Source: Amnibacterium sp. (GTDB taxonomy: Bacteria > Actinomycetota > Actinomycetes > Actinomycetales > Microbacteriaceae). From it: a stretch of DNA of 33,094 nucleotides. The stretch covers positions 1 through 33,094 of the forward strand of contig NZ_JAODBE010000055.1 of NCBI RefSeq assembly GCF_025463795.1, written 5' to 3'. Positions 156-21,214 of this stretch are shown here, piece after piece (the first letter of the stretch is position 1; the number at the start of each line of letters is the position of its first letter). A model generated the notes under the pieces. The model ran no database searches. It was given only the letters and a program-made list of their open reading frames with translations, and was not told where the DNA came from. Made by a program: the position numbers and the translations under genes.

Positions 156-380
156 CTACTGGCCTCGGCCCGTCTTCTCCTGCAACCGCTCGATGTGCTC
201 GGACGCCTCGGCCTTGGTGATGTCGGCCGGGATCTGCTCACCCGCCTCACGCGCCAGGGTGTCGAGGTAGCTCTTCTGCGCGCCGGTGGCCGGCTCGTCC
301 CCCGTCACCCACTCGCTCGGGTCCTTCTCGGTGCTCGATCCCTGCGGGCCGCCGAGCATCTCCGTCTCGTTCTCGCTCAT
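156..380 (-). CDS. DUF3072 family small protein
   Basis: A 74-residue, hydrophilic, probably cytosolic protein. The core motif TGAQKSYLDTLAREAGE at about residues 32-48, followed by an acidic/basic helix with KAEASEHIERL, matches my recollection of DUF3072, a short actinobacterial/proteobacterial family of unknown function. The N-terminal 30 residues are low-complexity and acidic. The ATG start is supported by a -10-like TACTCT ending 7 nt upstream with no Shine-Dalgarno sequence, the pattern of a leaderless mRNA. The gene stands alone, with its stop facing the left edge. No catalytic residues are evident. Confidence 0.85.
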   Translation of the reverse strand: MSENETEMLGGPQGSSTEKDPSEWVTGDEPATGAQKSYLDTLAREAGEQIPADITKAEASEHIERLQEKTGRGQ

Positions 381-18834: not shown

Positions 18835-18871
18835 GCGGAGAGGATCGGGGGCGGCGCGCACACGTCAGGGT

Positions 18872-19729
18872 GTGAGCACCTTCCCAGCCCGCCGATCCCG
18901 CCGCGCCGCCGTCGCGCTGCTGTCCGCCCTGACCGTCGGCGCGCTCGCCGGATGCACCGCTTCGGGCGGGTCCGGCGGGTCGGCCGCCACGACCTCGCGC
19001 GGTGGGGTGAGCGCGAGCGCGAGCGGGGCCAAGTCGGCCACGACCGACAGTCGAGCGGTCGTCACGACCGGCACCCTCGATCTGATCGCCACGGACCCGG
19101 TCGCCACGGCCGACTCCGTCGCGACCGTCGTGGCCGGGAGCGGCGGCCGCATCCAGGCGCGTGACGAGCATCCGACGCGTCCCGCTTCCGCGGACCTCAC
19201 GGTCCGCATCCCGTCCAGCGTGTTCGACAGCACCCTGACCGCGATCGAGCACCGCGCGAAGTCGGTGCGGAGCGTCAGCATCCACGCCTCCGACGTCACC
19301 TCGCAGGTCACCGACTACGCGGTCCGGATCGCGAACCTCCGCACGTCGATCACCCGCCTGCAGACGCTGCTGGCACGCGCCTCCGACACCGCCGCCCTGG
19401 TCGAGATCGAGTCGTCGCTGACCACGCGACAGACCGACCTCGAAGAGCTGCTGGCCCAGCAGAAGGACCTCACCGACCAGGTCTCGTACGCGACCCTCGC
19501 CATCACGCTCGAGTCGCCCGCGATCGCCCACCCCGGCAGCCCGTCCACCTTCATCAGCGGCCTCGTGGCCGGGGTCACCGCGCTCCTCCGCACCGCCGGC
19601 GCGATCGCCGTGCTCCTCGGGGTGCTGCTCCCGTGGGTCCTCACCCTCGGCGCGCTCGCCGCCGTGGGATGGTGGGTCCTCCGGCTCGTCCGACGCCGGG
19701 CTCGGGCCTCGGCCGCACCGGGGGCATGA
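18872..19729 (+). CDS. DUF4349 lipoprotein with C-terminal membrane helix
   Basis: A 285-residue protein. A lipoprotein signal ends in LAGC (C28), followed by a Gly/Ser/Ala linker (29-60). The DUF4349 domain starts near SRAVVTTGTLDLIATDPVATADSVATVVAGSGG and continues to TLAITLESP (about 60-214), with a long coiled coil at about 145-205 (IANLRTSITRLQTLL ... RQTDLEELLAQQKDLTDQ). A transmembrane helix at about 241-270 precedes RLVRRRARAS in the cytosol. The double anchoring (lipid and C-terminal helix) places the sensor-like domain outside. It overlaps the sigma gene by ATGA. DUF4349 has no proven function; a surface sensor for the sigma factor is inference. Confidence 0.88.
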   Translation: MSTFPARRSRRAAVALLSALTVGALAGCTASGGSGGSAATTSRGGVSASASGAKSATTDSRAVVTTGTLDLIATDPVATADSVATVVAGSGGRIQARDEHPTRPASADLTVRIPSSVFDSTLTAIEHRAKSVRSVSIHASDVTSQVTDYAVRIANLRTSITRLQTLLARASDTAALVEIESSLTTRQTDLEELLAQQKDLTDQVSYATLAITLESPAIAHPGSPSTFISGLVAGVTALLRTAGAIAVLLGVLLPWVLTLGALAAVGWWVLRLVRRRARASAAPGA

Positions 19730-20319
19730 ACGCGGTCGCGATCGGAGGCGGCGTGGCGGTCGAGTCGAACCGGTCGACGGCGGCGGCGCCGTCCGATCGG
19801 GTGCTGCTCGCGGCGTCGGGATCCGCCGCCGAGGGGGCCTTCCGGCAGGTCATGCAGCGGCACAGCGGCGTGGTCTACGCGGTCGCCTATCGGCAGGTCG
19901 GCAGCGTCGCGGATGCGGAGGAGCTCGTGCAGGACGCGTTCGTGCTGCTCTGGACCAAGCGCGCCCGGCTGCGCTTCGTGGGCGAGTCCGCGCTCCCGTG
20001 GCTGCTCGTCGCGGTGAAGCATCTCGCCGCCAACCGGCGGCGGGCGATGCAGCGCCGCGGCAGGCACGAGACGGGGAACGACGCGCTCGCCGTGGCGGCC
20101 GCTCCCCCCGATCCGGCGTTCGACGACTTCGTGGCTCGGGCGTTCGACCGGCTCGACCCGCTGGACGCGCTGATCGCCCGGCTGTGCCTGGTCGAGGACC
20201 TCTCCTACGCGGAGGCGGCCCGGCGCGCCGGGCTCACGGAGGCGGCCGTCCGGAACCGGCTCTCGCGCACCCGCGGCCGGCTGCGCCGCGAGCTCGCCGA
20301 CGGACGGGGGGCCCGATGA
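19726..20319 (+). CDS. ECF-type RNA polymerase sigma factor
   Basis: A 197-residue sigma-70 family protein. Region 2 spans about 38-105: AFRQVMQRHSGVVYAVAYRQVGSVADAEELVQDAFVLLWTKRARLRF, with the core-binding AEELVQDAFVLLW, then LPWLLVAVKHLAANRRR. Region 4 is at about 135-190: DRLDPLDALIARLCLVEDLSYAEAARRAGLTEAAVRNRLSRTRGRLRREL, with the helix-turn-helix at 160-185. No region 3 is present, so it is ECF class. The ATG overlaps the lipoprotein stop and its stop overlaps the next start (both ATGA), so all three proteins are coupled. Confidence 0.9.
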   Translation: MNAVAIGGGVAVESNRSTAAAPSDRVLLAASGSAAEGAFRQVMQRHSGVVYAVAYRQVGSVADAEELVQDAFVLLWTKRARLRFVGESALPWLLVAVKHLAANRRRAMQRRGRHETGNDALAVAAAPPDPAFDDFVARAFDRLDPLDALIARLCLVEDLSYAEAARRAGLTEAAVRNRLSRTRGRLRRELADGRGAR

Positions 20320-20807
20320 GCGGCGGCATCCCCACCGACCGGCAGCTCGCCGCGCTCGAGCAGCGCGTCCTGACCCGCATCCGCCGGCGGGCCGCTGTCC
20401 GTGCGCGGCTGATCTCGGGCGCCTCGGCGGCGGCGCTGGTGGTGGGCGCGATCGCCCTCGTGCATCCCGCCGGCACCTCCCTCTCGGGCGGATCGGCGGG
20501 CTCGGGCGCCGGCGATCGGAGCGCCGCGTCGGCGGCCGCCGTGGTGCTCTGCCACAGCACGAGCGCGGCCCGGTCCCCGGCGACGAAGGTGCCGCTGCCG
20601 GGCCACCCGACGAGCGCATCGATCGTCGCCGCGTGCGCCGAACCGGCTGCGCCATCCGCATCCGGCTCGCCCGCGTCGGGGTCGCCGTCGACGACGGAGC
20701 TGCGGTCCCCGATCGTCTGCCGGAACGCGAACGACGGCTGGGAGGTCTTCCCCGCCGACGGTCATCCCGCCACCCTCTGCATCCGGAACGGACTCAGGGC
20801 ACGCTGA
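20316..20807 (+). CDS. Small single-pass membrane protein, candidate sigma regulator
   Basis: A 163-residue protein that I do not recognise. A basic amphipathic N-terminus (DRQLAALEQRVLTRIRRRAAVRARL, about 8-32) is followed by one transmembrane helix (about 33-50). An external Ser/Ala/Pro/Gly-rich region then carries four cysteines (C79, C107, C135, C155), with a compact C-terminus (SPIVCRNANDGWEVFPADGHPATLCIRNG). The position after the sigma gene and the cytosolic-helix/TM/exterior layout are those of an anti-sigma factor, but the zinc anti-sigma motif HxxxCxxC is absent. The start ATG overlaps the sigma stop. Confidence 0.75.
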   Translation: MSGGIPTDRQLAALEQRVLTRIRRRAAVRARLISGASAAALVVGAIALVHPAGTSLSGGSAGSGAGDRSAASAAAVVLCHSTSAARSPATKVPLPGHPTSASIVAACAEPAAPSASGSPASGSPSTTELRSPIVCRNANDGWEVFPADGHPATLCIRNGLRAR

Positions 20808-20863: not shown

Positions 20864-21214
20864 ATGAGCTTCCCCGCCGAGAACATCCGCCTCTGGGCGG
20901 GCAAGGACGTCGTCGACTCGAAGGGCGACAAGATCGGATCGATGGAGTCGATCTACTACGACACGGGCGCGGACGAGGCGACGTTCGCAGCGGTCCAGGT
21001 GGGTCTCGTCGGCAAGCATCTCGTGTTCGCGCCGCTCCACGGCGCGGTGGTCGGCCCCGGCTACGTGAAGGTGCAGGTCGACAAGAAGATGGTCCGCGAC
21101 TCGCCCTCCCTCGGTGTGGACGGGGAGCTGACGCGCGATCAGGAGGCCGCGGTGTTCGCGCACTACGGCCTGCCCTACGACTCGTCCGGCGAGCGGCGCC
21201 TCGGTCGCCGCTGA
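20864..21214 (+). CDS. PRC-barrel domain protein
   Basis: A 116-residue soluble protein. Residues 6-75 (ENIRLWAGKDVVDSKGDKIGSMESIYYDTGADEATFAAVQVG ... HLVFAPLHGAVVG) form a PRC beta-barrel, a fold shared by RimM, photosynthetic reaction-centre H subunits and many stress-associated actinobacterial proteins. The C-terminal region (LTRDQEAAVFAHYGLPYDSSGERR) is the usual helix of this short type. The ATG has GGAGAG 8 nt upstream. It is a single gene, convergent with the DUF5107 gene. Partner and role are unknown. Confidence 0.87.
   Translation: MSFPAENIRLWAGKDVVDSKGDKIGSMESIYYDTGADEATFAAVQVGLVGKHLVFAPLHGAVVGPGYVKVQVDKKMVRDSPSLGVDGELTRDQEAAVFAHYGLPYDSSGERRLGRR

What the first reader, a model, noticed from the sequence alone, without database searches (positions are those of the whole stretch)
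18872..20807. DUF4349 lipoprotein, ECF sigma factor and one-TM protein as a coupled surface-signalling triad
Three genes overlap by ATGA at both joints. The first product is anchored outside by a lipid and by a C-terminal helix with a basic cytosolic tail. The second is an ECF sigma factor. The third has a cytosolic basic helix, one membrane span and an external domain with four cysteines. This is the topology of a sensor/anti-sigma/sigma system, but the third protein lacks the zinc anti-sigma motif and the first is a DUF of unknown function with a long coiled coil. A disulfide-sensing exterior domain is one possibility.
Basis: partly seen in the sequence, partly recalled or inferred. Interest (0 to 1): 0.62.

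Follow-up and report, generated by a model that had tools for sequence, protein, structure and literature searches.

The report
Lipoprotein-linked sigma/anti-sigma signalling operon
Three overlapping genes most likely form one outside-to-inside signalling unit, in which a small membrane protein holds back a transcription switch and a surface lipoprotein of unknown function helps it sense the cell envelope; this gives a testable role to a widespread uncharacterised protein domain.

Summary
In detail: a DUF4349 lipoprotein (18872-19729), an ECF sigma factor (19726-20319) and a one-TM protein with four external cysteines (20316-20807) overlap by ATGA at both joints. The triad, with 4-nt overlaps at both joints, is in 7 of 7 genus genomes held. 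The third protein belongs to a fast-evolving family encoded directly downstream of related ECF sigmas; its four cysteines are invariant in 12 aligned members. A profile of its cytosolic N-terminus alone, trained outside the genus, recovered only ECF-adjacent proteins at E<=0.11 (19 of 19), six of them with the same N-terminus and TM fused directly to DUF4349. Sigma/fused-DUF4349 pairs occur in Microbacterium and Aeromicrobium, and a similar pair in Tsukamurella. In an acidobacterium DUF4349 is fused to a zinc anti-sigma domain. The fusion operons share a promoter (TGAGACGAT-N12-GACAC); a similar element (N13) precedes the DUF4349 gene of the triad, clearly in 4 of 6 genomes tested. Best reading: a CnrYXH-like three-part system of one-TM anti-sigma, DUF4349 lipoprotein co-sensor and autoregulated ECF sigma. 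Sigma contact, signal and any disulfide switch are unproven, and most DUF4349 genes examined have no such sigma beside them.

The parts
18837..18845 (+). putative -35 element GGAGAGGAT of an ECF promoter in front of the triad
   Evidence: PWM from 13 sigma/fused-DUF4349 operons; window site scores 12.0, 600 random 250-mers reach 11 in 1.3%; GAGAC-N16-ACAC in 10 of 13 training upstreams, shuffled maximum 3
18859..18865 (+). putative -10 element CACACGT, 13 nt after the -35; 6 nt before the GTG start, so the message may be leaderless (inference)
18872..19729 (+). DUF4349 lipoprotein P0001 (285 aa)
   Evidence: PF14257 1.3e-51; lipobox Cys28 and C-terminal TM window 245-263
19052..19675 (+). DUF4349 domain; AlphaFold2 core mostly above pLDDT 90: strand-helix-strand-strand-helix-strand, helical hairpin 143-205, strand, then a long C-terminal helix
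19726..20319 (+). ECF sigma factor P0002 (197 aa)
   Evidence: Sigma70_r2 and Sigma70_r4_2
20316..20807 (+). P0003, one-TM putative anti-sigma factor with four external cysteines (163 aa)
   Evidence: A3 profile without genus members finds it as the only G000 hit, E 3.6e-5, profile positions 3-165 of 166
20316..20408 (+). cytosolic N-terminal segment of P0003 (residues 1-31), putative sigma-binding helix
   Evidence: N-terminus-only profile; helix 8-49 in the single-sequence model, block means of pLDDT 73-91 over the first 30 residues
20409..20465 (+). single membrane span of P0003 (residues 32-50)
   Evidence: hydropathy

Best explanation
The three genes form one co-translated, autoregulated envelope-signalling operon. 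P0003 is a non-zinc, single-span anti-sigma factor: its short basic N-terminal helix holds the ECF sigma factor P0002 at the membrane, and its four-cysteine exterior is half of the sensor. The DUF4349 lipoprotein P0001, tethered outside by a lipid and by a C-terminal helix, is the partner sensor. It stabilises or gates P0003 in the way CnrX does CnrY. In sister lineages the same DUF4349 domain is built directly into the anti-sigma. When the envelope signal changes DUF4349 and/or the cysteine domain, sigma is released and transcribes the operon from the promoter at 18837-18865. Shown: gene order, overlaps, homology of the N-terminus, domain fusions, cysteine invariance, promoter element (clear in 4 of 6 genus members tested). 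Inferred: sigma binding, DUF4349-P0003 contact, release step, signal.
For: Triad with 4-nt overlaps in 7 of 7 genus genomes. N-terminus-only profile trained on 5 non-genus proteins, run on 15,268 ORFs of the fetched loci: 19 of 19 hits at E<=0.11 lie just downstream (-60 to 220 nt) of an ECF sigma; 5 are training rows, 6 are DUF4349 fusions, P0003 has E 0.014; first other hit at E 0.58. Profile A3 (no genus member): 17 hits at E<1e-10 in 199 genomes, 5 of them training rows, all within 144 nt downstream of an A1-type sigma on the same strand, and P0003 the only hit in its genome. Sigma followed by N-terminus+TM+DUF4349 in Microbacterium (5 loci) and Aeromicrobium (1); sigma/DUF4349 pair in Tsukamurella. 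zf-HC2 (2.9e-7) plus DUF4349 (3.9e-47) in one protein after an ECF sigma in Terracidiphilus. Promoter motif in front of fusion operons and triads but, strictly upstream, in only 1 of 59 stand-alone DUF4349 genes at score >=11. Three different downstream contexts within the genus.
Against: Most DUF4349 genes have no A1-type sigma neighbour: 11 of 199 family genomes have the pair, of 122 with DUF4349, and 1 of 30 top-scoring phylum loci, so DUF4349 has another main job. No structure or assay shows P0003 touching sigma. The N-terminus-only profile recovers 2 of 7 genus proteins and 6 of 13 fusions at E<=0.11; L091, for example, has E 7.7. A3 missed the triad proteins of G016, G097 and G159. The promoter score is weak in 2 of 6 genus members (L060 8.7, L134 3.3), and the strict pattern hits the triad in only 2 of 7 genomes. 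P0003's exterior model is below pLDDT 50. No solved anti-sigma was found by sequence for P0003's family.
Confidence: 0.72

Rival explanations
1. P0003 alone is sensor and anti-sigma (as in the two-gene sigma/4-Cys pairs); the DUF4349 lipoprotein is an output of the sigma factor, an envelope-protective protein that happens to head the operon, perhaps giving feedback as the CseA lipoprotein does in Streptomyces.
For: Two-gene sigma/4-Cys pairs recur in the family: 17 hits in 15 of 199 genomes at E<1e-10; DUF4349 genes without a sigma neighbour are widespread. CseA: a lipoprotein whose loss raises sigE promoter activity (PMC6767563, passages).
Against: DUF4349 is fused to the same kind of anti-sigma N-terminus in other genera and to zf-HC2 in an acidobacterium, which argues for a regulatory role of the domain. 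It overlaps the sigma gene by 4 nt in 7 of 7.
Confidence: 0.22
2. P0003 is not an anti-sigma factor but a positive co-factor or a sigma-controlled membrane protein; sigma activity is set only at the level of transcription.
For: No Pfam match and no zinc motif; some ECFs are not held by anti-sigmas (general knowledge).
Against: The shared cytosolic N-terminus with variable exteriors next to ECF sigmas, and zf-HC2 in the same place in front of DUF4349. Weak matches of A2 members to NCBIfam CU044_5270 (4 of 12, best E 2.4e-4) and to an 'anti-sigma factor' model (2 of 12, best E 0.0092).
Confidence: 0.08
3. The gene overlap is only an accident of a compact genome and the three proteins are functionally unrelated.
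For: ATGA overlaps are common in GC-rich actinobacteria (general knowledge).
Against: Kept in 7 of 7 genomes over three different downstream contexts; DUF4349-sigma links recur as fusions elsewhere.
Confidence: 0.03

Closest known systems
CnrYXH of Cupriavidus metallidurans (PMC4803752, passages read)
   Same: Three parts: membrane-bound anti-sigma CnrY, sensor CnrX, ECF sigma CnrH; the sigma promotes transcription of its own locus; inactivating CnrY or CnrX turns it on. CnrY is a class II anti-sigma of two helices (PMC7406223, passages).
   Different: Sensor here is a DUF4349 lipoprotein with a C-terminal helix, not CnrX; P0003 has its own four-Cys exterior; gene order sensor-sigma-anti-sigma. 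No sequence kinship was shown; metal sensing not implied.
sigma / fused N-terminus-TM-DUF4349 pairs (Microbacterium, Aeromicrobium; found here) and the Tsukamurella pair
   Same: Related ECF sigma followed directly by a protein with a cytosolic N-terminal segment, TM and DUF4349 exterior; 4-nt overlap in the Microbacterium and Tsukamurella loci; same promoter type.
   Different: DUF4349 is part of the anti-sigma candidate itself and held by two TM helices; no separate four-Cys protein.
two-gene ECF sigma / four-Cys one-TM pairs of the same family (found here)
   Same: Third gene homologous over full length, four cysteines invariant in the 12 aligned; nearby in the sigma tree with moderate support.
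   Different: No DUF4349 gene next to the ones whose neighbourhoods were scored.
zf-HC2 protein fused to DUF4349, Terracidiphilus locus L255
   Same: DUF4349 as exterior of a membrane protein next to an ECF sigma.
   Different: Canonical zinc anti-sigma motif; other phylum.
CseA lipoprotein, sigE-cseABC of Streptomyces coelicolor (PMC6767563, passages)
   Same: Lipoprotein encoded with an ECF sigma; its loss raises the sigE promoter.
   Different: Thought to work on a two-component system; no anti-sigma there; sigE promoter is not a sigma-E target.

Membership tests
ECF sigma factor | sigma-70 regions 2 and 4 only, over curated cut-offs | tested here: met
   Sigma70_r2 43.7 bits (cut-off 24), Sigma70_r4_2 32.3 (25.7) in a 197-aa protein; TIGR02937 62.3 over cut-off 42.9
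DUF4349 (PF14257) | score over gathering cut-off | tested here: met
   175.4 bits, cut-off 27.7, whole profile
class I zinc anti-sigma (zf-HC2/ASDI) | HxxxCxxC motif or zf-HC2 match | tested here: not met
   P0003 has no Cys before residue 79 and no HxxxCxxC; no Pfam match
class I non-zinc anti-sigma (RskA/RseA type) | four-helix ASDI of about 100 residues before the TM | tested here: inconclusive
   P0003 has only about 31 residues before the TM, shorter than an ASDI (PMC7406223, passages), but helix content was judged from a single-sequence model only
class II anti-sigma (CnrY type) | short helical cytosolic segment that wraps sigma2 and sigma4 | not testable with these tools
   length and topology fit; no complex prediction available; no CnrY among the sequence matches
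CnrYXH-like three-part system | separate exterior sensor, one-TM anti-sigma and ECF sigma in one autoregulated operon | tested here: inconclusive
   gene order and promoter element fit; function not tested
CU044_5270 family (NF038083) | score over curated cut-off 100 | tested here: not met
   P0003 10.1 bits, E 0.53; best of A2 members E 2.4e-4

The most novel reading that the evidence does not exclude
DUF4349 is a general envelope-sensing module that has been wired to the same ECF/anti-sigma system at least twice: by fusion to the anti-sigma N-terminus and, in this genus, as a separate lipoprotein whose lipid anchor replaces the anti-sigma's membrane span, so that a doubly tethered DUF4349 works in trans on a four-cysteine anti-sigma. 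Trees favour two hook-ups (DUF4349 tree: 4 fusions cut off by a 96/86 branch; sigma tree: 7 fusion sigmas 99/98, triads near 4-Cys sigmas with moderate support), but AU tests do not reject one origin (p 0.086 and 0.14).
Probability: 0.4. Interest if true: 0.65.

Novelty: new variant of a known kind. Interest (0 to 1): 0.52.

Why it matters
DUF4349 occurs in 122 of 199 sampled genomes of this bacterial family and 174 of 296 sampled genomes of the phylum, and Pfam lists it as a domain of unknown function. Its repeated coupling to sigma/anti-sigma systems makes a regulatory, envelope-sensing role directly testable. The family of short, non-zinc, one-TM anti-sigma candidates with swappable exteriors, and their shared promoter, gives a way to look for partners and regulons of related unassigned ECF sigmas.

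Tried and rejected
Triad as a family-wide unit: rejected. Among 77 DUF4349 neighbourhoods (76 fetched plus the window) 11 had a sigma detected next to the DUF4349 gene; the profile was grown from P0002 and could miss distant ECFs. P0003 itself as query matched 7 of 150 family genomes, only the genus ones strongly.

DUF4349 as a regulon member everywhere: stand-alone DUF4349 regions gave 11 of 59 sites at 9 or more and 7 at 11 or more. Checked: 7 of the 11 are the start codon and first arginine/lysine codons of the signal peptide. Strictly upstream of the first in-frame ATG/GTG only 2 of 59 reach 9 and 1 reaches 11, so there is no evidence that stand-alone genes belong to this regulon.

The motif is not confined to this group: of 102 other ECF upstreams 15 reach 9 and 8 reach 11. 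Six of those 8 are close sigmas of the tree; L053 and L290 are not.

Classical ECF promoter GGAAC/CGTC patterns: no excess upstream of the fusion operons.

Genome-wide regulon: the strict pattern has 17 matches in 7 genus genomes (control pattern 0). In G000 there are 2, one in front of the triad; the other (C130) shares nearly its whole spacer with matches in five further genus genomes and is probably coding (not followed).

Fold of DUF4349: no Foldseek match at E<=0.001. Partial matches to GspL-type periplasmic domains (XcpY, PulL) suggest only a ferredoxin-like core. The VIA-align rows are mostly helical hairpins and say nothing about kinship.

Known structures by sequence: none convincing for P0003's family or P0001. 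Pfam matches of A2 members are weak and few (VirB8 in 2 of 12, best E 0.0049; LSDAT_prok in 1, 0.004).

Tat export of P0001: a Methylobacterium DUF4349 signal peptide was tested as a Tat candidate and, with its lipobox cysteine changed, also used Sec (PMC10924467, passages). The twin-arginine is not constant in the genus, so I draw nothing from it.

Literature: DUF4349 with sigma factor, 0 papers; DUF4349 alone, 2 papers; PF14257, 0; CU044_5270, 0. Searches were broader and I saw only their listings. The library holds only openly licensed papers.

Full report
OBSERVATION. P0001 carries a lipobox (Cys28), a C-terminal hydrophobic stretch (245-263) and a basic tail. P0003 has no cysteine before residue 79, one span (32-50), four exterior cysteines and no HxxxCxxC. 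Pfam gives DUF4349 (1.3e-51), sigma regions 2 and 4, and nothing for P0003 at E<=1.

CONSERVATION OF THE TRIAD. All 7 genus genomes held (own included) have the sigma. In all 7 the DUF4349 gene lies before it and the four-Cys gene after it, with 4-nt overlaps at both joints (in G200 the DUF4349 gene is cut by the contig end). Three different downstream contexts were seen: a PRC-barrel protein (PF05239 2.5e-6) in the window and a like one in G201, a second kind shared by G097, G159, G199 and G200, and a third in G016. Upstream genes were not compared systematically. The constant unit is the three genes.

WIDER FAMILY. DUF4349 is in 122 of 199 family genomes. Coordinates compared by eye put DUF4349 next to an A1-type sigma in 11: G000, G016, G097, G159 (triads) and G045, G116, G171, G106, G164, G027, G185 (sigma first, then a DUF4349 protein). 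These are the top 11 sigma hits; 8 of the 11 sigmas were in A1, while G171, G164 and G185 were not. In 30 top-scoring DUF4349 loci of a 296-genome phylum sample only one, G106 of the same family, had such a sigma within the 1.5-kb flanks. DUF4349 is thus mostly found without this kind of sigma.

FUSIONS. In the sigma-first loci the DUF4349 protein begins with a short cytosolic segment and a TM helix resembling P0003's. Five are Microbacterium, one is Aeromicrobium flavum, and one is Terracidiphilus. The Terracidiphilus protein holds zf-HC2 (30.9 bits, cut-off 22.2) and DUF4349, that is, a zinc anti-sigma motif with DUF4349 outside. A Tsukamurella plasmid record has the sigma/DUF4349 pair too, overlapping by 4 nt, with TGAGACGGT and GACATAG upstream (read by eye). 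Of two annotated plasmid loci looked at, the other (Mycobacterium branderi) has DUF4349 with no sigma among its listed neighbours.

P0003 IS ONE OF A FAMILY. Downstream of several next-best sigmas lie one-TM proteins alignable with P0003 over the full length; the four cysteines are invariant in the 12 sequences aligned. Profile A3, made of the 5 non-genus sequences only, finds P0003 as the sole match in its genome (E 3.6e-5). It gives 17 matches at E<1e-10 in 15 of the 199 genomes, 5 of them training rows, all within 144 nt after an A1-type sigma on the same strand (one search compared). Matches down to E 0.01 (53 genomes in all) are mostly short and were not each checked. A3 did not find the triad proteins of G016, G097 and G159, so the family is fast-evolving. 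Among its weaker, N-terminal-only matches is the DUF4349-fused protein of G185 (E 2.4e-4).

ANTI-SIGMA N-TERMINUS. A profile of only the cytosolic part (about 34 residues, without the TM), trained outside the genus, was run on 15,268 six-frame ORFs of the fetched loci. All 19 hits at E<=0.11 lie just downstream of an ECF sigma: 5 training rows, 6 DUF4349 fusions, two genus proteins (window 0.014, G201 6.4e-4) and six others. The first hit elsewhere has E 0.58. The test is specific rather than sensitive: 5 of 7 genus proteins and 7 of 13 fusions stay above E 0.11. The loci were chosen around ECF and DUF4349 genes, so this shows specificity within that set, not a genome-wide rate. Constant inside, variable outside, next to ECF sigmas: that is the anatomy of an anti-sigma family. 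Some A2 members weakly match CU044_5270 and 'anti-sigma factor' models of NCBIfam.

PROMOTER. Upstream of 13 sigma/fused-DUF4349 operons the pair GAGAC-N16-ACAC occurs in 10 of 13 (shuffled maximum 3). A two-box PWM was built from all 13 (TGAGACGAT-N12-GACACTG); in the scan 12 of 13 training rows score 20 or more, and L119 is missed because its site lies at the end of the stretch. Six genus triads with a complete upstream were scored in front of the DUF4349 gene: window 12.0, L059 16.2, L060 8.7, L061 18.4, L132 16.8, L134 3.3 (N13 in each). 4 of 6 reach 11, against 1.3% of 600 random 250-mers. The two weak ones keep the position, 35 nt before the start, that the window, L061 and L132 have. 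Of 16 distinct four-Cys operons 4 score 20 or more (6 of 18 loci, two counted twice), and the close sigmas L146, L148, L191, L154, L155, L157 score 19-27. The other 12 four-Cys operons score 10.1 or less. Stand-alone DUF4349 genes lack it: strictly upstream 1 of 59 reaches 11. The element in the window is GGAGAGGAT 18837-18845 and CACACGT 18859-18865, six bases before the GTG, so the message may be leaderless (inference). It lies before DUF4349, so the lipoprotein is part of the putatively autoregulated unit.

HISTORY. In the DUF4349 tree (80 rows, 4 fusions) the triad clade (100/100) sits among stand-alone genes and the fusions are apart (96/86). In the sigma tree (54 rows) the triad sigmas (100/100) fall near four-Cys sigmas (branches of 80-95) and the 7 fusion sigmas form their own clade (99/98). 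AU tests do not reject one common clade (p 0.086 and 0.14). Two independent links are favoured, not proven.

STRUCTURE. P0001 with 7 relatives: mean pLDDT 78, DUF4349 core mostly above 90, an alpha/beta core with four strands and two helices, a helical hairpin, a further strand and a long C-terminal helix; no significant PDB match. P0003 alone: a helix 8-49 with fair confidence at its start, the exterior unresolved. No complex could be predicted.

MECHANISM. P0003 holds sigma through its N-terminal helix, and the exterior of P0003 together with DUF4349 reports on the envelope. In fusions DUF4349 is held between two TM helices. In the triad it is held between a lipid and a TM helix, so the topology of the domain is the same in both arrangements. 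CnrYXH is the closest parallel that I found: sensor and anti-sigma are separate proteins and inactivating either turns the system on (PMC4803752, passages). The steps of sigma contact, sensor contact, release and signal are inferred.

VERDICT. A real and coherent signalling operon; a new variant of the ECF sigma/anti-sigma kind with a DUF4349 lipoprotein as third part. The disulfide hypothesis is open.

Noticed in passing
L060:2152-2796, L061:2348-2965, L134:2543-3160, L133:3439-4050: A second, different ECF sigma gene lies about 1.6-1.9 kb downstream of the triad in 4 of the 7 genus genomes; in the three examined it is followed, overlapping by about 4 nt, by a 411-428 aa putative membrane protein.
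   Followed up: partly
L255:3177-4388: Terracidiphilus (Acidobacteriota) zf-HC2 + DUF4349 anti-sigma candidate directly after an ECF sigma.
   Followed up: yes
L181: In G045 a weak four-Cys-type match lies before the sigma rather than after it.
   Followed up: no
window 20864-21214: A PRC-barrel protein (PF05239) follows the triad after a short gap in the window, and a like protein in G201, but not in the other five genus genomes.
   Followed up: partly
G000:C130:13909-13934: Second exact match to the promoter-like pattern; nearly the same spacer in six genus genomes, so probably conserved coding sequence.
   Followed up: no
L060 and L134, upstream of the triad: An inverted repeat (CACGGATCAGG ... 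CCTGATCCGTG) lies just upstream of the triad promoter region, perhaps a terminator of the preceding gene (read by eye).
   Followed up: no
L094:1847-2230: G049 carries a second, partial DUF4349 reading frame about 1.5 kb from its full one.
   Followed up: no
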